Source: Acidobacteriaceae bacterium (GTDB lineage: Bacteria > Acidobacteriota > Terriglobia > Terriglobales > Acidobacteriaceae). Taken from it: a stretch of DNA of 34,434 bases. Location: the NCBI GenBank assembly GCA_003166855.1, contig PMUM01000002.1, positions 19,078 to 53,511 on the forward strand, given 5' to 3'. The stretch's first letter is position 1; every line of letters starts with the position of its first letter. Positions 19,400 to 28,978 of the stretch are shown here, piece after piece. The translations under genes were made by a program, and so were the position numbers. The notes under the pieces were generated by a model, which did not search any database, was not told the origin of the DNA, and saw nothing but the letters and a program-made list of their open reading frames with translations.

Positions 19400-19888
19400 T
19401 TAGCGGTGGGTCAGTCCGAAACTCACGGCGCCTGCGGAGCCACCGATGTTGACCAGTGAGACCGCGCGCTCCAGCTTGTGATGGCCGGTCTTGTGGAAGA
19501 AGTAGCTGAGGCTGATGACGCCGGCGGTTTCGCCAATGAAGTTGACTGCCAGTCCGGCGGTCGAACGCCCGAACACGCGAACGATCGGATTCAGTTCCTG
19601 TCCGCCGCTTTGAAGGTTGGCGCGGGTCACGGCGAAGTCGGCGCCGTTGAAGGCTGCGGCGGCGATGAACAACACGCGATTCTGCTTGTCGAAGAACCTG
19701 TGCTCGGAGCTTGCGATCGACGGCGCAAGTACGACCGGCGCCACCGGCTCAACTGCAGGGGTGGGGGCCTCCGGAAGTGATGCCGAGGCTATCAGAGCCT
19801 GGGCATGAACCGTCGAACAAAGGCAGCTGCCCACAGCCAGAACACTGACGCAAAACCAGAAATACGTTGCGAATCTGCGGAAGATCAT
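19400..19888 (-). CDS. Small exported protein of unknown function
   Basis: Taken from the ATG at 19888 (MIFRRFATYF) this gives 162 residues; an ATG nine codons upstream (19915) is also possible. An N-terminal signal peptide ends near STVHAQA. A Pro/Ala/Val-rich linker follows (PEAPTPAVEPVAPVV), then a hydrophobic domain with FDKQNRVLFIAAAAFNGADFAVTRANL, the segment ELNPIVRVFGRSTAG, and a small Gly-rich helix near the C-terminus (GGSAGAVSFGLTH). The domain has two or three probable membrane-associated helices. Similar short proteins are common in acidobacterial genomes, but I recognise no function. Confidence 0.72.
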   Translation of the reverse strand: MIFRRFATYFWFCVSVLAVGSCLCSTVHAQALIASASLPEAPTPAVEPVAPVVLAPSIASSEHRFFDKQNRVLFIAAAAFNGADFAVTRANLQSGGQELNPIVRVFGRSTAGLAVNFIGETAGVISLSYFFHKTGHHKLERAVSLVNIGGSAGAVSFGLTHR

Positions 19889-20004
19889 AAGTGCCCGCCG
19901 AGGTCGGCGTAGCACTCTGGAAGGGGCAAACGGGGGGCCGCCGGTCCAACATTAGATTCGCGGCAAACCTCCCCGTAATCAACCACTTGATTGTCGCTTC
20001 TAAT

Positions 20005-22088: not shown

Positions 22089-22760
22089 TTATGAAAGGAA
22101 GAATTCCTTGGTCAGAGCGGCCCAATCTTCGTTGGGCATGTGCGCTGTGAGGTCGTCGACCGCCACGCCGCCATCCTGCGCCAGCGCGCCCATCGCCATC
22201 GGCATTCTGCTATTCAGCTTGAGTGCGGATGATTCGGTCCACAGCCGCGCCAGCGTGCCGCCCATCAAGTTGCGGAAGTTGATCTTCGAATCCGGGGCCT
22301 GCACGGTCACGAGCCAGCCTTCTCCATAAGGATCTTTCCGCGCCAGTTCCGGATCGTTCATGACGGCTTCGTTGATGGCGGTCACCGTGCCCTCGATCGG
22401 CGAAACCATGTCCACCGACTTGCCATCGCGGAAGATGGTCCAAATCTTCTGTCCCTGGCGAACCCAGCGTCCGCGCTGCGGCAGTGCGATGCTGTCAATC
22501 TTTCCGACCAGCTTCGATGCGAAATCGTCGATGCCCACCCGCACCAGTTCGTGGCTCTCGCTCAGCGCCCAAGTGTGGCCGCCGTGATAGCGGAGGTTTT
22601 CTGGGACCTGAAAGCCAGCAACCACTGCCGGAACCATCCGCGCCGCCGCTTCACGATTCGCAGTCTGCAGAACGGGCTGCTTCGCCAGTTGCTTTTGTCC
22701 ACGCACGTAATCAATGAGTAAGAAGATTGCGAATGTCAGAAGTACCATGATGACTGTCAT
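22089..22760 (-). CDS. Membrane-anchored glycine cleavage H-like (lipoyl-fold) protein
   Basis: This 223-residue protein starts with a single membrane helix (MTVIMVLLTFAIFLLIDYVRG, 1-21) and then a GcvH-like biotinyl/lipoyl-fold domain (about 50-155): RYHGGHTWALSESHELVRVGIDDFASKLVG, then SVDMVSPIEGTVTAIN, and DPYGEGWLVTVQ. In GcvH the lipoylated Lys is eight residues before the Pro of the SPVSG turn; here that position is Gly113, with Lys114 beside it, so normal lipoylation is doubtful. No gcvT or gcvP lies nearby. It is divergent from an HybA/HybB operon, and GcvH-like proteins of this kind often accompany membrane redox complexes, so an electron-transfer or assembly role is more likely than glycine cleavage. 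GAGGTGG precedes the ATG. Confidence 0.8.
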   Translation of the reverse strand: MTVIMVLLTFAIFLLIDYVRGQKQLAKQPVLQTANREAAARMVPAVVAGFQVPENLRYHGGHTWALSESHELVRVGIDDFASKLVGKIDSIALPQRGRWVRQGQKIWTIFRDGKSVDMVSPIEGTVTAINEAVMNDPELARKDPYGEGWLVTVQAPDSKINFRNLMGGTLARLWTESSALKLNSRMPMAMGALAQDGGVAVDDLTAHMPNEDWAALTKEFFLS

Positions 22761-22815
22761 AACCCACCTCGCCCGGAGTTCCCTTTTGCTTCTGGGTCAC
22801 TCACGTTTTTACTAA

Positions 22816-22832
22816 GGCAATCGCCAGGCCAA
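22816..22832 (-). promoter_or_regulatory. Putative sigma-54 promoter for the GcvH-like gene
   Basis: On the minus strand TTGGCCTGGCGATTGCC matches the sigma-54 pattern YTGGCACGNNNNTTGCW at most positions, including the essential GG (22829-22830) and GC (22817-22818) ten bases apart. The predicted start near 22806 leaves a 45-base leader. A sigma-54 activator gene lies in the divergent operon. Confidence 0.55.
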
Positions 22833-22948
22833 ACGGAATGAAGAGACGGGACAAGCGCGCATAGCGACTGCATCTTCAGCGCTCTGAACGAGATAGCAAG
22901 ATACCGACTAGTTCCGCGCAGAAGTCTGCAAGAAAACGCAGCAACGAT

Positions 22949-22966
22949 TTGCGATGAAGATCGCAA
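22949..22966. promoter_or_regulatory. Perfect inverted repeat, candidate activator site 1
   Basis: TTGCGAT-GAAG-ATCGCAA has perfect seven-base arms. It is about 150 bases upstream of the predicted sigma-54 start, a typical enhancer distance for NtrC-family activators. FNR-type proteins (TTGAT-N4-ATCAA) are another possible reader because the geometry is the same. Confidence 0.5.
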
Positions 22967-23053
22967 CAGGAAAAAGGCATCAGTCTATGCGAGTGGGACC
23001 AGCGGCGACCTCGAACCAGTGTGCAATGAGCGACTTGGGCAGATTCAAGCTGC

Positions 23054-23070
23054 TGATGCGATCCGCATCA
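23054..23070. promoter_or_regulatory. Perfect inverted repeat, candidate activator site 2
   Basis: TGATGCG-ATC-CGCATCA has perfect seven-base arms and lies about 105 bases from site 1, ten helical turns away. The two sites share the letters GCGAT but are not identical in symmetry, so they may be read by different proteins. Confidence 0.45.
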
Positions 23071-23149
23071 CCGTGCTGCTGCAAATAACAACGGAAAACG
23101 GGCCGCTGTAGCCCTCCCAAACGCTATTGACCAGCGTCACGTGCAGAGG

Positions 23150-23163
23150 TGATGCAGGTCACG
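23150..23163. promoter_or_regulatory. CRP/FNR-like half-site pair
   Basis: GTGATGCAGGTCAC carries GTGA and TCAC separated by six bases, the spacing of CRP-family sites; the outer T/A of the full consensus is missing. It lies 221 bases before the HybA-like gene. Weak evidence. Confidence 0.3.
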
Positions 23164-23384
23164 GCTGAGAAATCCTTAATTGTTGAGAATCTTAGCTGTC
23201 TGAAGCTGCTGAATTTCGCGACAGCCTCCGATCTGATGAGGTAAGCAGCTCATAAGCGGTCCGATTCCCGTCCACGGTTGCGCCGGTAATCGCTCCTTTT
23301 TCCCTCATTCAGCTCAGGCGTCGGTCGAGAGGATTTCCGGGCGGCTCTGGTCAGCTCGAACAGCCACGCCCGGAGAAATACTTC

Positions 23385-24179
23385 ATGAGCAAAGCACTCT
23401 TATATGATTCCACGGTTTGCATCGGCTGCAAACAATGCGAACAGGCCTGCGCCGGCCAGAACAAACTTCCTTATAACGACGCCATCGCGGCCGAAGAAAT
23501 TCAGTCGGACCATAAGATGACCGTCGTGCTCACGCGCGGCGACAAGTTCATGCGCCGCCTGTGCATGAATTGCAACGACCCTTCCTGCGCATCCGTCTGC
23601 CCGGTGGGCGCGCTGCAGAAGACTGCCCTCGGTCCGGTCACCTACGACGCCTCGAAATGCATGGGCTGCCGTTACTGCATGGTCGCGTGCCCCTTCAGTG
23701 TTCCTAAGTATGAATGGGGCAAGCTCGTTCCCAAGGTGCAGAAGTGCACCATGTGTCCCGATCGCGTGGCCCAGGGAAAGCCGACCGCATGCGCGGAGAT
23801 CTGTCCGACGGGCGCCACCAAATTTGGCGAGCGCGACGAACTGATCGCCGAAGCGCAGAAACGGATCCGCGACAATCCAACCAACTACGTGGATCACATC
23901 TACGGGCTTGAGGAAGTTGGGGGCACATCGGTGCTGCTGCTCTCCGCCGTGCCCTTCGAGACTTTTGGCTATCGCAGCAACCTCTCGAAAGATCCGATGC
24001 CAATGCTCACCTACCGGGTCCTGTCGCACATTCCGGACTTCGTTCCTCTGGGTGGGATGGTGCTGGGCGGCATCTGGTGGATCACGCATCGCCGCGAGGA
24101 AGTGGCCCTCGCCGAGGGGCGCGACTCAGTTCAAGCGACCGATACGAAGACTGCCAACAAGAATGGGAGGAAGCGATAA
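23385..24179 (+). CDS. HybA-like 4x[4Fe-4S] ferredoxin subunit with C-terminal membrane anchor
   Basis: This 264-residue protein has sixteen cysteines in four clusters: CIGCKQCEQAC (about 12-22), CMNCNDPSCASVCP (about 60-73), CMGCRYCMVACP (about 92-103) and CTMCPDR with CAEICP (about 121-145). It is of the DmsB/NrfC/HybA type that carries electrons between a catalytic subunit and a membrane quinone protein. A C-terminal hydrophobic segment (DFVPLGGMVLGGIWWI, about 218-233) matches HybA. Unlike E. coli HybA there is no N-terminal Tat signal; the upstream in-frame codons do not encode a hydrophobic leader. Its stop overlaps the next ATG as TAATG. Confidence 0.88.
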   Translation: MSKALLYDSTVCIGCKQCEQACAGQNKLPYNDAIAAEEIQSDHKMTVVLTRGDKFMRRLCMNCNDPSCASVCPVGALQKTALGPVTYDASKCMGCRYCMVACPFSVPKYEWGKLVPKVQKCTMCPDRVAQGKPTACAEICPTGATKFGERDELIAEAQKRIRDNPTNYVDHIYGLEEVGGTSVLLLSAVPFETFGYRSNLSKDPMPMLTYRVLSHIPDFVPLGGMVLGGIWWITHRREEVALAEGRDSVQATDTKTANKNGRKR

Positions 24180-25372
24180 TGGCCCGCACCACGACGTTCA
24201 AGCTCACCTTCTGGAAAGTGGTTTTTCTGTTCTTGATGGCCGCCGGCCTCTACGCCACCTTCGTCCGCTTCACCCAAGGTCTCGGCGCCTCGACAAATTT
24301 GAGCGATCAATTTCCCTGGGGCATCTGGATCAGCTTTGACGTGCTCTGCGGCGTCATGCTGGCCGCAGGCGGCTTCACTCTGACCGCCGCCGTCCACATT
24401 CTGAACATCAAGCGCCTGCACTCCATCATCCGGCCGACGATTCTCACCGCATTCCTCGGCTACATCCTGGTGTGTGCGGCCCTGATGTTCGACCTGGGCA
24501 AGCCCTACAACATATGGCATCCGCTGATCATGCGGAATCCGCACTCGGTGATGTTCGAAGTGGCGTATTGCGTGATGCTCTACACCACAGTACTCGCGCT
24601 CGAGTTTTCTCCCATCGTGCTGGAGCGCTTTAACATGCAGAAGCCGTTGAAGGTTGTGCGCGCCATCCTGATTCCGCTGGTGATCTGCGGCGTGATTCTC
24701 TCGACCCTGCATCAATCGTCGCTGGGCACGCTGTATCTCATCGTCCCTGAGAAACTCTATCCGTTGTGGTATACGCCGCTGCTCCCGGTTTTCTTCTTCC
24801 TCTCCGCGATTGCGGTCGGGCTGGCGATGACGATTTTCGAATCGTCGTTGAGTTCGAAGCATTTCGGATTGCAGCTGGAACTGCCCGTATTGCAGGAACT
24901 CGGCCGGGTTCTGGTGGTGGTGCTCGGAGTCTACGCGATCCTGCGCTTCGAAGACTTGGCGAATCGCGGTGCGCTGAAGTTGGCGCTGCATCCGGGATAC
25001 GAGATGTATCTTTTCTGGCTTGAGATTTCACTGGCCATCATCCTTCCCCTGGCATTGCTCGTACAGCCCAGAGTGCGATCCAGCGCCAATGGGCTTTACC
25101 TTGCCGCGGTGCTCGTCGTTCTCGGCTTCATCACCAATCGCATGAATGTGAGCATCACGGGATTCGAAGGATCTACGGGCGTCCGCTACTTCCCCAAGTG
25201 GACTGAATTGGCCGTCACTGGTTCGATCATCGCCGCCGGGTTCGCCCTGTTTGGCATGGCAGTGAAGTACTTGCCAATCTTTCCAAAAGAAGAACTCAGT
25301 CTCGAGCCTGTCACGGAGAGGGAATCCGCGCTGCCCGACGTTTCTGCGGTCATGGAGCATGCAGGAGACTGA
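24179..25372 (+). CDS. HybB/NrfD-family integral membrane quinone-interacting protein
   Basis: I start at the ATG at 24179 (397 residues), which overlaps the HybA-like stop and has GGGAGG upstream; the longer frame is a shadow of the preceding gene. It has about ten membrane helices, beginning TFWKVVFLFLMAAGLYATFVRF, with conserved segments FPWGIWISFDVLCGVMLAAGG (about 44-64), FDLGKPYNIWHPLIMRNPHSVMFEV (about 103-127) and NRMNVSITGFEG (about 322-333). The family (PsrC/NrfD/HybB) passes electrons between the [4Fe-4S] subunit and quinone. The best match in features is HybB. Confidence 0.88.
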   Translation: MARTTTFKLTFWKVVFLFLMAAGLYATFVRFTQGLGASTNLSDQFPWGIWISFDVLCGVMLAAGGFTLTAAVHILNIKRLHSIIRPTILTAFLGYILVCAALMFDLGKPYNIWHPLIMRNPHSVMFEVAYCVMLYTTVLALEFSPIVLERFNMQKPLKVVRAILIPLVICGVILSTLHQSSLGTLYLIVPEKLYPLWYTPLLPVFFFLSAIAVGLAMTIFESSLSSKHFGLQLELPVLQELGRVLVVVLGVYAILRFEDLANRGALKLALHPGYEMYLFWLEISLAIILPLALLVQPRVRSSANGLYLAAVLVVLGFITNRMNVSITGFEGSTGVRYFPKWTELAVTGSIIAAGFALFGMAVKYLPIFPKEELSLEPVTERESALPDVSAVMEHAGD

Positions 25373-27038
25373 ACCCACTCGCGGTCGCTGGTTGCGCCTG
25401 AGTCTCACTCTCAGCGCCAAGCTGAACATACTGTTGCTTGGCGCGATGGTTGTGATCTTCGCGTTGCTGGGCTATCTCAATGTCCGTCTGCACCGCCAGC
25501 ATCTGGAGCAGAACACCCTGCTCAGCGCGGAGCGTGTGGGCGACGTCATCAAGCACAGCACGACCGATTACATGCTGCGCAACGATCGGGACGGTCTGCA
25601 CCACTCGATCAAGACCATGGCGGCCGAGCCCGGTATGGAGAAGATCCGCATCTTCGACCAGGAAGGCAGAATCACCTACACCACCGATTCGGCCGAACAG
25701 AATCACGTCGTCGATAAGACCGCCGAAGCCTGTTATGCGTGCCACGCCCAGTCTCAACCCCTGGCACGACTGAATCGTCCCGACCGCTTCCGCATTTACC
25801 AGAACGCTTCGGGAACCCGGGTCTTGGGCATCATCACTCCGATCGAAAATCAGCCTGCATGCTCCAACGCCGCATGCCATGCGCATCCGGCAGAGCAGAA
25901 GATCCTGGGAGTGCTCGACACCAATCTCTCGCTAGCGAAGGCCGACGTGCAGGTCGCGGAAAGCAGCCGCCGAATGATTGCCTACACCGGCTGCGCCCTG
26001 TTGTTGATCGCGCTTCTGAGCTGGTTCTTTGTGTGGCAGGTCGTTGGCCGCCCGGTAAAGGCGCTCGAACGCGGCACCGAACGCCTGGCTGCGGGCGATC
26101 TGGGGTACCAGATTGCTGAGCAGTCCAACGACGAACTCGGCGAACTCGCCAGCTCGTTCAATGGCATGAGCCGCCAGCTGCAAGCAGAGCACAACGAGAA
26201 CATCGCGTGGACCCATTCCCTCGAAGAGCGCGTGGAGCAAAAGACGCGGGAACTCAAACGCGCCCACGAGCACGCGCTGCATACCGAAAAGATGGCTTCC
26301 ATCGGGAAGATGGCGGCGGTGCTGGCGCATGAGATCAACAATCCACTGTCGGGTATCCTCACGTACGCCAAGCTGCTGCGAAAATGGATTGACCGCGAGG
26401 ATGGCGGTCGAGCGCACCGCCAGGAGATCTGCGACTCTCTCGACCTCATCGCCTCCGAGAGCCGGCGCTGCGGCGACCTGGTGAAGAATCTGCTGACGTT
26501 CTCGCGCACCACGCCCATGAACCTGCAGCCTGCCAATCTCAACCAGGTTGTCGATCGTTCTCTGCGACTCGTGCAACACCAGCTCGATCTCGCCGGAATT
26601 CAGGTGCAGCCACAACTCGATCCCGATCTGCCGCCGGTGTTGTGCGACGCCGCACAGATCGAGCAGGTGATTCTCGCGCTGGTCATGAATGCTCTGGATG
26701 CCCTGCCACAGGGCGGCAATCTATGGATTGTAACGAGTTTCAGCCATGAACCCAACCACGTACAAATCGTGGTGCGGGATGACGGATCCGGCATTCCCTC
26801 TGAAATCCTGCCGCGCATCTTCGAGCCCTTTCTCACGACCAAAGAGACGGGACGCGGAGTCGGACTGGGCCTGGCCATCAGCCGCAGCATTCTTGAGCGT
26901 CACAACGGAAATATCGAAGTGCAATCGGAAGCCGGCCGCGGCACAACTTTTACCGTAACTCTGCCGTGGGATGTGGACCGCGAAAAGGTCGCGCCATCCC
27001 CGGCCAACGAAATTGCCGCTACCGCTAGCGGGAGGTGA
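25359..27038 (+). CDS. Sensor histidine kinase with two c-type heme motifs in the extracytoplasmic domain
   Basis: This 559-residue kinase has a first membrane helix (about 22-42), an extracytoplasmic domain to about 205, a second helix (about 207-229), a HAMP domain (about 229-282) and a coiled coil. The HisKA H-box has His324 in LAHEINNPL, followed by HATPase_c boxes (NALDALPQGG, DDGSGIP, GVGLGLA). The sensor domain carries a standard heme c motif Cys125-x-x-Cys128-His129 (CYACH) and a wider Cys168-x4-Cys173-His174 motif (CSNAACH), a spacing known in some tetraheme cytochromes. Such kinases probably sense redox state or a small ligand through periplasmic heme. Its start overlaps hybB by 14 bases and its stop overlaps the regulator start. 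Confidence 0.9.
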   Translation: MQETEPTRGRWLRLSLTLSAKLNILLLGAMVVIFALLGYLNVRLHRQHLEQNTLLSAERVGDVIKHSTTDYMLRNDRDGLHHSIKTMAAEPGMEKIRIFDQEGRITYTTDSAEQNHVVDKTAEACYACHAQSQPLARLNRPDRFRIYQNASGTRVLGIITPIENQPACSNAACHAHPAEQKILGVLDTNLSLAKADVQVAESSRRMIAYTGCALLLIALLSWFFVWQVVGRPVKALERGTERLAAGDLGYQIAEQSNDELGELASSFNGMSRQLQAEHNENIAWTHSLEERVEQKTRELKRAHEHALHTEKMASIGKMAAVLAHEINNPLSGILTYAKLLRKWIDREDGGRAHRQEICDSLDLIASESRRCGDLVKNLLTFSRTTPMNLQPANLNQVVDRSLRLVQHQLDLAGIQVQPQLDPDLPPVLCDAAQIEQVILALVMNALDALPQGGNLWIVTSFSHEPNHVQIVVRDDGSGIPSEILPRIFEPFLTTKETGRGVGLGLAISRSILERHNGNIEVQSEAGRGTTFTVTLPWDVDREKVAPSPANEIAATASGR

Positions 27039-28405
27039 ACCAGGTGGAGTCACAAGGGAAGCTACTGATCGTCGACGACGAATTGAGCGTTCGCGATTCG
27101 CTGGGAAAATGGTTCCGCGAGGAAGGCTATGAGATCGGCACCGCCGAAAGCGCCAGCGACGCGCTCACCCGCATGGCCGAGAATAAATGGGAGCTTGCTC
27201 TGCTCGACATCAAGATGCGTGGCACCGACGGCATCGAACTGCAGCGCCGCCTCCACGAGATGGATCCCGACCTCATCGTCATCATGATGACTGGATACGC
27301 GTCTGTGGAAACCGCAGTCACAGCCTTGAAGAACGGCGCCTATGACTATGTCAGCAAGCCGCTCGATCCCGACGAGATTGCGCATCTGGTAAAAAAAGCT
27401 CTGGCCCACCGTCGCGCCGAAAAAGAAAACGTCCGCTTGCGCGAGACAGTTGCGGAAATCACACGCCCCGGCGATCTCGTGGGGCAGAGTCCGGCGATGC
27501 GTAGAGTATTTGATGCCATCGAGACTGTCGGCCCAACCGATGCGAATGTCTTAATTACGGGCGAAAGTGGAACGGGAAAAGAGCTGGTTGTGCGCGCCAT
27601 TCATGCGGCCAGCATGCGCCGCTTCCATCCGTTAGTCGTGATTCACTGTGGCGCGCTGACCGAGACCCTGCTCGAAAGCGAACTCTTCGGCCATGAAAAA
27701 GGCGCGTTCACTGGTGCGCAGTACCGTAAGAAAGGGAAATTTGAAATCGCCGAAGGTGGCACCGTATTTCTCGACGAAATCGGCGACATCAGCCTGAAGA
27801 CGCAGACCGACTTGCTGCGCGTGCTGCAGGAGCGCGAGATCACTCGCGTAGGCGGCAATCAGGTCATTAAGGTTGACTTCCGTTGCGTGGCCGCCACCAA
27901 CAAGAACCTCGAAACCATGATTGAAGAGGGCACTTTCCGTCCGGACCTGTTTTACAGGCTCAACGTATTCCGCATCGAACTGCCCCCGCTGCGCGAGCGT
28001 CGGGAAGACATTCCTCCGCTCGTCGAACATTTCGTGCGCAAGTTCGCTCTCGCCATGAACAAGCACGTCACTCGAATCGCTCCCGCGGCTATGGACCAGT
28101 TGCAACAGCAACCCTGGATGGGCAACGTCCGCGAACTGGAGAATGCAGTCGAGCGTGCCATGGTTGTGGCGCAGGAGCCTGAGTTGCGCGAGCAGGATTT
28201 TATTTTCAAGACACAGGCCGCCGCGCCCGCTACAGCCGGCAAGAGCCTCGACGAGATCGAGCGTGCCCACATTCTCCGCGTGCTTGAAGATTGCGGCGGC
28301 AACCAGAGCCGCGCCGCGGAGATCCTCGACATCGACCGGGTTACGCTTCATCACAAGCTCAAGCGCTATGGCTGGACGCGCTCTCCGGTGGAAACTCGCA
28401 ACTGA
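27035..28405 (+). CDS. NtrC-family sigma-54 dependent response regulator
   Basis: This 456-residue regulator starts at a GTG overlapping the kinase stop (GTGA). A receiver domain (about 8-125) has the phosphoacceptor Asp58 (LLDIK), acidic pair in IVDDE and Lys108 in VSKPL. The AAA+ domain has Walker A GESGTGK (176-182), the sigma-54 contact loop GAFTGA (223-228) and Walker [11 protein letters not shown] (241-250). A C-terminal Fis-type helix-turn-helix follows ([27 protein letters not shown] region). It will activate sigma-54 promoters in response to the heme kinase; the predicted promoter at 22816-22832 is the nearest candidate target. Confidence 0.95.
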
Positions 28406-28426
28406 CACTCGATGAAGCTGGCCTGA

Positions 28427-28978
28427 ATGAACCTGGTGCATCTGCTTCCGGTCGGTAAAGTGGATCTCTCACTGCTGCACGATTTGCGCGCCGCAATTCC
28501 CCGGAGTCTGCAGGTGGCCTGCGAGATTCTCCCCTACGAGCTCGATCCCACTCCCTCGTATCACCCCGAGCGACAGCAATATCATTCTTCCGAAATCCTG
28601 CAGCGCATGCAGACGCTCGTCCGCCCGCAGGACTGGCGGTTTCTGGCGGTTGCCGACCTCGATCTTTACATCCCCATCCTGAAGTACGTTTTTGGAGAAG
28701 CCCAGATGGGCGGCCCTTGCGCCGTGGTTTCCGTGCACCGGCTGCGGCAGGAGTTCTATGGTCTTGCCCCTGATCTTCCGCTGCTGAGCCAGCGTCTCCT
28801 TACGGAATCCGTCCATGAGTTGGGTCATACTCTCGATCTGCGCCACTGCCAGGACTACAGCTGCGTCATGGCCTCGTCGCACTCGGTAGAGTGGATCGAC
28901 CTGCGGGAAACCAGGTTATGCGATTCCTGCCGTTACCAGCTGGAATCGCACCCGTCAATAGCTGAGAAGCGCGCCTAG
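28427..28978 (+). CDS. amzA: Archaemetzincin family zinc metallopeptidase
   Basis: This 183-residue protein has the archaemetzincin zinc motif His130-Glu131-x-x-His134 with His140-Cys141 (HELGHTLDLRHC), then Cys146 and the zinc-finger pair Cys165-x-x-Cys168 (CDSC), as in the pattern HExxHxxGxxHCx4C...CxxC. The usual Gly after the second His is Asp137 here. A Met (Met148) follows Cys146, in place of the Met-turn. No signal peptide is seen, so it is probably cytoplasmic. It follows the response regulator by 21 bases and is likely cotranscribed with the redox/sensor operon; substrate unknown. Confidence 0.88.
   Translation: MNLVHLLPVGKVDLSLLHDLRAAIPRSLQVACEILPYELDPTPSYHPERQQYHSSEILQRMQTLVRPQDWRFLAVADLDLYIPILKYVFGEAQMGGPCAVVSVHRLRQEFYGLAPDLPLLSQRLLTESVHELGHTLDLRHCQDYSCVMASSHSVEWIDLRETRLCDSCRYQLESHPSIAEKRA

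What the first reader, a model, noticed from the sequence alone, without database searches (positions are those of the whole stretch)
22089..28978. Heme-sensing sigma-54 circuit fused to an orphan HybA/HybB redox module with a GcvH-like partner and an archaemetzincin
Seen: a plus-strand run of HybA-like, HybB-like, diheme-motif kinase, NtrC-type activator (starts overlapping previous stops) and archaemetzincin, divergent from a membrane-anchored GcvH-like gene with a sigma-54-like promoter. Known: HybA/HybB link a hydrogenase to quinone. No hydrogenase, molybdoenzyme or cytochrome gene is present here. Inferred: the set is a complete sensing and electron-transfer unit whose catalytic partner is missing, encoded elsewhere, or replaced by the GcvH-like protein.
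Basis: partly seen in the sequence, partly recalled or inferred. Interest (0 to 1): 0.72.

Follow-up and report, generated by a model that had tools for sequence, protein, structure and literature searches.

The report
Heme-switched electron-transfer module of Acidobacteriota
A conserved set of six genes in soil Acidobacteriota appears to form a membrane electron-transfer device, probably not for hydrogen, with its own heme-type sensor that seems to switch on one partner protein related to glycine-cleavage H-protein but lacking its chemical arm.

Summary
The window comes from a Candidatus Sulfotelmatobacter-type genome. HybA-, HybB-, kinase, sigma-54 regulator and archaemetzincin genes form one run, divergent from a membrane-anchored GcvH-like gene (GcvHm). 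The set is real: all six lie together in 34 of 80 related and 18 of 32 phylum-wide loci, and HybA accompanies GcvHm in the genome even when unlinked (31 of 33). It is probably not a hydrogenase remnant: this genome's Hyb operon has its own Tat-type HybA and a HybB; only 2 of 80 loci have a hydrogenase nearby. GcvHm has the H-protein fold but no conserved lipoyl lysine. Its upstream region carries a conserved sigma-54 site and, in most relatives, two clusters of enhancer-like half-sites (one clear site in the window). In 24 of 80 loci 2-oxoacid:ferredoxin oxidoreductases lie near the set; this genome encodes both kinds elsewhere. Best reading: an NrfD-type membrane module passing electrons from 2-oxoacid oxidation to menaquinone or cytochrome c. 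HybA seems to have lost its Tat signal once in this clade, but charge patterns still suggest a periplasmic Fe-S domain, so the donor side is unresolved. New variant of a known kind.

The parts
22089..22760 (-). GcvHm: membrane-anchored H-protein-like, 223 aa, no conserved lipoyl lysine
   Evidence: Pfam GCV_H; alignments of 18 and 117 sequences; model pLDDT 84.6, H-protein fold by Foldseek
22816..22831 (-). sigma-54 promoter candidate (-24/-12) of GcvHm, TGGCCTGGCGATTGCC
   Evidence: rpoN present in this genome
22938..22970 (-). proximal enhancer candidate, TGTTGCGATCTTCATCGCAAATCGTTGC
   Evidence: lies in the half-site cluster seen at -220 to -180 in relatives; only exact copy of TGTTGCGATNNTCATCG in this genome; one strict half-site place in the window
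23054..23093 (.). distal enhancer candidate, with palindrome TGATGCGATCCGCATCA; no strict half-site in the window here
   Evidence: position of the second half-site cluster, -340 to -300, in relatives; letters read
23170..23245 (.). near-invariant block between GcvHm and HybA in divergent-type loci, role unknown (possible HybA promoter or control)
   Evidence: alignment of 11 intergenic regions; core pattern matched in 26 of 222 fetched loci (some overlapping), the ones I checked being divergent-type
23385..24179 (+). HybA-like protein, 16 Cys for four [4Fe-4S], C-terminal helix, no signal peptide
24179..25372 (+). HybB-like NrfD-family membrane protein, 397 aa
25359..27038 (+). sensor histidine kinase with diheme-motif sensor domain
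25731..25745 (+). heme motif 1, CYACH (residues 125-129)
   Evidence: Cys 53 of 58, His 55 of 58 sequences
25860..25880 (+). heme motif 2, CSNAACH (residues 168-174)
   Evidence: 57-58 of 58 sequences
27035..28405 (+). NtrC/AtoC-type sigma-54 response regulator, Asp58, GAFTGA
28427..28978 (+). archaemetzincin with complete zinc site

Best explanation
The set is a dedicated membrane redox module with its own switch. HybA (Fe-S) and HybB (NrfD type) carry electrons between a partner and menaquinone and/or a c-type cytochrome. In the window's clade the partner is most likely ferredoxin, reduced by 2-oxoacid:ferredoxin oxidoreductases (branched-chain/Vor type and 2-oxoglutarate/Kor type) made from other loci of this genome. 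A diheme-motif kinase reads a redox state outside the cytoplasm; its regulator, with sigma-54, switches on GcvHm (a wider regulon is not excluded). GcvHm is a membrane-anchored H-protein fold, probably cytoplasmic and without lipoate, that probably docks or gates the module rather than carrying electrons. The archaemetzincin probably turns over a component. Shown by computation: conservation, co-inheritance, the promoter site before GcvHm, missing lipoyl lysine, neighbourhood of OFOR genes. Inferred: that this regulator acts there, electron donor, direction, acceptor, roles of GcvHm and archaemetzincin.
For: Six genes together in 34 of 80 loci (many contigs cut short) and 18 of 32 phylum loci, in several gene orders. 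In 101 relatives HybA (E<=1e-75) and GcvHm (E<=1e-40) are both present in 31, GcvHm alone in 2, HybA alone in 3, each of these with a weaker GcvH-like gene beside it (my cut-offs). Of 33 genomes whose GcvHm stands apart from the block, 31 hold HybA at E<=1e-60. OFOR alpha subunit in 24 of 80 loci (16 Vor, 9 Kor, 1 both) against about 1.2% per 20-kb stretch expected from 4 in this genome's 6.94 Mb, in several layouts, including one strand CoA-transferase-VorD-VorA-VorBC-IlvE-GcvHm-HybA-HybB-kinase-regulator-archaemetzincin (L141) and KorABC-GcvHm on one side and Vor on the other side of the block (L061, same genus). This genome has Vor (VorA 76%) and Kor (KorA 88%) on other contigs. Regulation. 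Kinase sensor.
Against: None of the 15 closest loci (L069-L083, several on short contigs) has OFOR beside it, and of 32 phylum loci only 3 have (two in the same family). In the 11 distant loci with Tat-type HybA no OFOR reached my cut-off, but a triheme cytochrome was there in 5. HybA's C-terminal helix is followed by a positively charged tail in both clades and HybB loop charges keep the same pattern, which predicts a periplasmic Fe-S domain and not a cytoplasmic ferredoxin contact. A hydrogenase lies near the set in 2 of 80 loci. OFOR genes as a group lack the sigma-54 and enhancer signals. In the closest loci the enhancer signal is weaker (7 of 14 with three or more half-sites; one place in the window). 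No expression or biochemical data.
Confidence: 0.4

Rival explanations
1. A periplasm-facing quinone:cytochrome c oxidoreductase like Hmc, Qrc or other NrfD-cytochrome modules: HybA sits outside (carried by an unknown Tat partner), electrons go between menaquinol and a c-type cytochrome; the OFOR link is shared physiology only.
For: Relatives carry a triheme cytochrome c7 beside the set (5 of 32 phylum loci) or fused to HybB (L194, L195, L198, L199, L147), and a small cytochrome c, usually just before HybA, lies in 14 of 80 loci; Tat signals on HybA in 11 of 67 homologues; charge pattern of HybA tail and HybB; best NCBIfam hits HmcB and HmcC; the paralogous locus in this genome has QrcA/QrcB-like genes.
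Against: 56 of 67 HybA homologues have no accepted signal, nor has the window's, and Tat-like neighbours by a loose pattern occur in 12 of 80 loci without a recurrent family (at most 2 of one family); no cytochrome in the window ORFs scanned; no QrcB-like gene in the 80 and 32 loci.
Confidence: 0.35
2. Orphan or accessory subunits for a [NiFe] hydrogenase whose catalytic subunits lie elsewhere.
For: Family resemblance to HybA/HybB; several hydrogenase large-subunit matches in the genome; a Hyb-type large subunit in the same stretch in L122 (about 1.4 kb beyond HybA) and a 50% relative in L080.
Against: The Hyb-type hydrogenase on contig 102 has its own HybA and HybB, and L122 also shows a second HybB beside its hydrogenase; window proteins score below the HybA (196.4 of 263 bits) and HybB (309.1 of 450 bits) cut-offs; 78 of 80 and 32 of 32 loci show no large subunit at E<=1e-8 with three query types.
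Confidence: 0.07
3. The module is mainly a redox sensor: HybA/HybB feed the quinone or ferredoxin state to the kinase, and electron flow is incidental.
For: Fixed linkage of HybB, kinase and regulator with overlapping reading frames.
Against: The kinase has its own heme-motif domain; core GcvHm-HybA-HybB trios occur with a different kinase whose ORF shows no such motif (L043, L045).
Confidence: 0.1
4. GcvHm is a lipoylated redox carrier that replaces the catalytic subunit.
For: H-protein fold; the window has Lys114 near the site.
Against: Lys114 in only 0.19 of 117 sequences; the profile alignment puts the true lipoyl lysine at Gly113, which is Gly in 0.84.
Confidence: 0.03

Closest known systems
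HybA/HybB of [NiFe] hydrogenase 2
   Same: Fe-S ferredoxin with C-terminal helix plus NrfD-type HybB
   Different: no hydrogenase subunits in the window, no Tat signal on HybA, scores under the family cut-offs
HmcB/HmcC of the Hmc complex
   Same: best NCBIfam matches, 262.8 and 326.3 bits
   Different: below cut-offs (420, 550); no multiheme cytochrome found in the window ORFs scanned
Qrc menaquinone reductase (and the QrcAB-bearing paralogous locus of this genome, contig 222)
   Same: Fe-S plus NrfD subunits; the paralogous locus also has two GcvH-like proteins, kinase, regulator and archaemetzincin
   Different: no multiheme or molybdopterin-like subunit in the window
Glycine cleavage H-protein
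   Same: fold; TM-score by target 0.86-0.92 for the five best hits
   Different: membrane anchor, extra C-terminal helices, no conserved lipoyl lysine
Geobacter c-heme chemoreceptor sensor domains GSU0935/GSU0582 (3B42, 3B47)
   Same: first by sequence profile (E 1e-5 for 3B42) and first by Foldseek E-value; the second heme motif aligns
   Different: additional CxxCH motif, CX4CH in place of CxxCH; the fold match is partial (TM 0.40/0.49), and by TM-score WalK/KinD sensor domains, which carry no heme to my knowledge, fit better (up to 0.70)
Archaemetzincin
   Same: HExxHxxxxxHC plus C, M, CxxC site
   Different: bacterial, fixed beside a two-component system

Membership tests
HybA/HybB of hydrogenase 2 | NCBIfam equivalog cut-offs | tested here: not met
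   HybA 196.4 of 263 bits; HybB 309.1 of 450 bits
HybA/HybB of hydrogenase 2 | hydrogenase large and small subunits in the operon | tested here: not met
   none in the window ORFs scanned; the Hyb operon is on contig 102; 2 of 80 related loci have a large subunit in the stretch
HybA/HybB of hydrogenase 2 | Tat signal on HybA | tested here: not met
   none in the window nor accepted in 56 of 67 homologues
Hmc complex | HmcB/HmcC cut-offs | tested here: not met
   262.8 of 420 and 326.3 of 550 bits
Qrc complex | QrcC/QrcD cut-offs | tested here: not met
   63.3 of 400 and 164.8 of 570 bits
NrfD superfamily | Pfam PF03916 gathering score | tested here: met
   89.3 bits, cut-off 25.8
GcvH (lipoyl H-protein) | H-protein fold | tested here: met
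GcvH (lipoyl H-protein) | lipoyl lysine | tested here: not met
   NCBIfam gcvH 78.7 of 115.85 bits
Archaemetzincin | family cut-off and zinc motif | tested here: met
   152.2 bits, cut-off 145; ligands in 58-59 of 59; the usual Gly of the motif is Asp in the window and variable in the set
Archaemetzincin | proteolytic activity | not testable with these tools
   none
c-type heme sensor kinase | heme motifs conserved | tested here: met
c-type heme sensor kinase | sensor fold of the c-heme chemoreceptors | tested here: inconclusive
   Pfam Mcp40H-20_sensor 26.1 bits, just under its cut-off of 27; 3B42 first by E-value but low TM-score
c-type heme sensor kinase | bound heme | not testable with these tools
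   none
Ferredoxin:menaquinone oxidoreductase | reaction with ferredoxin and menaquinone | not testable with these tools
   only gene-neighbourhood support
Ferredoxin:menaquinone oxidoreductase | Fe-S subunit on the cytoplasmic side | tested here: inconclusive
   no signal peptide against charge patterns

The most novel reading that the evidence does not exclude
An unrecognised kind of energy-coupling complex: a ferredoxin-fed, NrfD-based menaquinone (or cytochrome c) reductase with a non-lipoylated H-protein as docking or gating subunit, made when a diheme kinase and a sigma-54 regulator switch on that subunit; it arose when the Fe-S subunit of a periplasmic NrfD module lost its Tat signal and moved to the cytoplasmic side.
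Probability: 0.25. Interest if true: 0.82.

Novelty: new variant of a known kind. Interest (0 to 1): 0.6.

Why it matters
How facultatively anaerobic soil Acidobacteriota dispose of low-potential electrons from amino and 2-oxoacids is, as far as I know, not settled. If this module does it, it would add a ferredoxin-to-quinone route beside Rnf and complex-I types, give a working context for bacterial archaemetzincins, and show a non-lipoylated H-protein used as a redox-complex subunit. The regulatory prediction (one promoter, enhancer-like sites, one regulator) can be tested directly.

Tried and rejected
Hydrogenase link: the large-subunit family search gave 8 matches on 6 contigs of this genome. 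I read the gene calls of the Hyb operon (contig 102), the Hox-type cluster next to Vor (contig 48) and the contig 450 cluster; contigs 49 and 281 were fetched but not read, contig 232 only as a short locus. A late check with three large subunits, one small subunit and one QrcB-like query against the 80 and 32 loci found a large subunit in L122 and L080 only and no QrcB-like gene; this raised the hydrogenase rival from 0.05 to 0.07. Solved-structure search for HybB by sequence gave nothing at E<=0.1. Rfam found no RNA in the window at gathering score, nor at E<=0.5 in 22700-23450. A strict sigma-54 pattern over the genome gave 30 sites against 7 for the reversed pattern, and the enhancer pattern with up to 2 mismatches gave 37 against 6; both exceed their control, I did not follow them, so a wider regulon is open. 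The conserved block before HybA stays unexplained. A k-mer look for the regulator's sites first tried a TGTC-type motif that was not enriched. Literature: no paper in the held library has archaemetzincin with Acidobacteria or GcvH-like with NrfD; the listings showed no title or abstract start that describes the set. Of PMC6018796 I read passages only; of PMC3427221 and PMC4681839 only abstract starts in a listing. The archaemetzincin motif was compared with that abstract. Statements on which side NrfD partners usually lie, on the positive-inside rule, on Tat hitch-hiking and on what Qrc and Hmc do are recalled.

Rows dropped or limits: L137 HybA is a distant relative with branch 8.96; it was left in the tree but not counted for the single-loss statement, and the signal-less group has support 93/77, below the tool's mark. 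Conservation counts use one best ORF per locus at >=0.8 coverage (0.7 for GcvHm; for the regulator only >55% identity). Tat calls: 13 pattern hits of 67, 11 accepted by eye, L102 and L113 rejected; 23 of the 67 have fewer than 20 in-frame codons upstream. OFOR counts need at least 55% identity to VorA of L141 or KorA of L096. Shuffles keep base composition only. My gene caller is a simple script and missed or misjoined some genes. G127 and G517 give identical hit places and look like one genome. The 80 loci are the best 80 of 163 relatives; they are related and not independent.
Full report
What is there. The window belongs to a genome of Candidatus Sulfotelmatobacter type (closest public locus PLBY01000077, 97% for GcvHm; own genome 6.94 Mb in 479 contigs, window on contig 82). 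HybA, HybB, kinase and regulator genes overlap at their ends and the archaemetzincin follows after 21 bases. GcvHm is divergent, 624 bases away. The other window ORFs scanned give sugar metabolism (aldose epimerases, FGGY kinase, fucose isomerase, aldolase), a symporter, an outer membrane receptor-like protein and others; no hydrogenase, molybdoenzyme or cytochrome.

It is a conserved unit. Mapping the window proteins on 80 loci (best 80 of 163 relatives) shows all six genes in 34, with many contigs cut short, while 36 have at most one gene of the block beside GcvHm. Phylum-wide, 34 of 396 genomes have GcvHm at E<=1e-40; of the 32 stretches then fetched 18 hold all six, in several gene orders and with one to three GcvH-like genes. 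Among 101 relatives HybA and GcvHm co-occur in 31, with 2 GcvHm-only and 3 HybA-only genomes, the last three having a weaker GcvH-like gene beside HybA (my cut-offs E<=1e-40 and E<=1e-75). Of 33 genomes where GcvHm stands apart, 31 have HybA at E<=1e-60; the two misses are the smallest, 2.9 and 1.6 Mb. Archaemetzincin hits over the curated cut-off occur in 33 of 101 relatives; comparing lists, 32 of these have GcvHm or HybA at the cut-offs above and the last, G006, has a GcvH-like gene of the paralogous kind on the same contig.

It is probably not a hydrogenase remnant. This genome carries a Hyb operon on contig 102 with a Tat-signal HybA (334 aa) and HybB (447 aa), 38% and 32% identical to the window's. 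The window proteins miss the HybA/HybB, HmcB/HmcC and Qrc cut-offs. Against this, a hydrogenase large subunit lies in the same fetched stretch in 2 of 80 loci (L122, with a second HybB beside it, and L080) and in 0 of 32. A paralogous locus of the same genome (contig 222) holds two GcvH-like proteins, a five-CxxCH cytochrome, a Tat-type molybdopterin-family protein, Fe-S and NrfD proteins and a divergent kinase-archaemetzincin-regulator set: the same regulators and GcvH-like partners there accompany a Qrc-like complex. No QrcB-like gene was found in the 80 and 32 loci.

GcvHm. It has an H-protein fold (model pLDDT 84.6; Foldseek, five best hits TM by target 0.86-0.92) behind an N-terminal helix followed by positive residues (cytoplasmic domain by the positive-inside rule, recalled). 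The window has Lys114, but only 0.19 of 117 sequences do, and the profile alignment puts the true lipoyl lysine at Gly113, which is Gly in 0.84. So it is unlikely to be a lipoyl carrier.

The switch. The kinase sensor domain has CxxCH (53-55 of 58), CX4CH (57-58 of 58) and the phospho-His (58 of 58). By sequence profile (E 1e-5, built of two weak pieces) and by Foldseek E-value the first match is the c-heme chemoreceptor domain 3B42, but its TM-score is only 0.40/0.49 and WalK sensor domains superpose better (up to 0.70). Upstream of GcvHm a sigma-54-like site lies mostly 65-95 bases before the start (66 of 78 at score >=17, 8.9% of shuffles). For HybA the same test gives 8 of 39 against 11.2%, with good sites about 50 bases before HybA in L130, L134, L138, L139 and L141. 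At a stricter score over gene calls it is 44 of 71 for GcvHm against 4 with reversed sequence; HybA 2 of 34, kinase 2 of 39, OFOR alpha 0 of 23, CoA-transferase 4 of 14 (control 1), and one small gene family of the closest loci (f22, like ORF 19400) 5 of 6 (control 1). Two clusters of GTTGC/GCAAC half-sites, sometimes as GTTGC-N5-GCAAC (13 regions), lie at -340 to -300 and -220 to -180: at least three half-sites in 57 of 77 GcvHm regions against 3.9% of shuffles; HybA 6 of 34, radical SAM 4 of 9, all uncategorised genes 56 of 587, others lower. The signal is weaker in the closest loci: 7 of 14 have three or more, 50 of 63 of the rest do, and the window has one place (two overlapping hits at -208). 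In this genome the exact pattern TGTTGCGATNNTCATCG occurs once, at GcvHm. rpoN is present. So the kinase-regulator pair most likely controls GcvHm, and with it OFOR genes where they follow GcvHm on the same strand; a wider regulon is open.

Partners. In 24 of 80 loci an OFOR alpha gene of Vor (16) or Kor (9) type lies in the same stretch, where about 1.2% per 20-kb stretch would be expected from 4 POR_N genes in this genome's 6.94 Mb. The loci are related and not independent, but there are several layouts: GcvHm then CoA-transferase-Vor; Vor-IlvE-GcvHm-HybA-HybB-kinase-regulator-archaemetzincin on one strand (L141; L130 similar); KorABC-GcvHm with the block convergent; and Kor and Vor on the two sides (L061, same genus). 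Of the 32 phylum stretches 3 have Vor, two of them in the window's family (L203, L204) and one in another (L207); L048, another family of the class, also has it. The window's own genome has Vor and Kor relatives on contigs 48 and 66 (VorA 76%, KorA 88%). None of the 15 closest loci (L069-L083, several short) has OFOR beside it. In other lineages a triheme cytochrome c7 is separate (L202, L211, L214, L217, L222) or fused to HybB behind an extra helix (L194, L195, L198, L199, L147; L195 by position and motif count only), and a small cytochrome c, usually just before HybA, lies in 14 of 80 loci.

Which side. HybA has an accepted Tat signal in 11 of 67 homologues, all in distant families, and none in the window's. 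In the tree the signal-less ones form one group with moderate support (93/77) apart from the stray L137, so the signal was probably lost once. Tat-like neighbours by a loose pattern occur in 12 of 80 loci without a recurrent family, so no steady carrier for export is seen. Yet the C-terminal helix keeps its positive tail in both groups and HybB keeps its loop charges, which favours the periplasmic side. I could not resolve this. It decides between the ferredoxin reading (my best, 0.4) and the quinone-cytochrome reading (0.35).

Verdict. A real, conserved and regulated redox module; the hydrogenase frame is weak and the idea of a GcvH-like enzyme replacement falls, the idea of a partner encoded elsewhere stands. 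New variant of a known kind, with an uncommon and well supported set of partners.

Noticed in passing
L039 (own genome contig 222:15000-32000): Paralogous locus: two GcvH-like proteins, one with a Cys-rich N-terminal part, with QrcA/QrcB-like, Fe-S and NrfD genes and a divergent kinase-archaemetzincin-regulator set.
   Followed up: partly
window 23170-23245: Near-invariant block in 11 divergent-type loci; role unknown.
   Followed up: partly
window 23149-23162: CRP/FNR-like palindrome GTGA-N6-TCAC between GcvHm and HybA, largely conserved in the alignment.
   Followed up: no
L202:6921-7175, L211, L217: Small Cys-rich protein (CPLLK...YC...C) before HybA in Tat-type loci; no Pfam match for the L202 copy; a similar stretch is fused to a GcvH-like protein in L039.
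   Followed up: partly
L194, L195, L198, L199, L147: HybB with a C-terminal extra helix and triheme cytochrome c7 domain.
   Followed up: partly
L122:14671-16366 and L080:18572-20269: [NiFe] hydrogenase large-subunit genes in the same stretch as the set; the only 2 of 80.
   Followed up: partly
L155 (own genome contig 48): Hox-type [NiFe] hydrogenase cluster next to CoA-transferase and Vor genes.
   Followed up: no
L043, L045: Second GcvHm-HybA-HybB type with a different kinase/regulator pair without heme motif and without archaemetzincin nearby.
   Followed up: partly
L141:3867-4385: Unknown 172-aa protein (no Pfam match; no NCBIfam match at E<=1e-8) at the head of CoA-transferase-Vor operons.
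   Followed up: no
L096:2425-3717 and relatives: Radical SAM/SPASM gene whose upstream regions also carry enhancer half-sites in 4 of 9 cases: possible second regulon member.
   Followed up: no
window 19400-19915 and family f22: Relatives of this unknown small gene have sigma-54-like sites upstream in 5 of 6 closely related loci.
   Followed up: no
L138: Contig labelled Bacillota carries an Acidobacteriota-type unit next to L139 in the tree; probably mislabelled.
   Followed up: no
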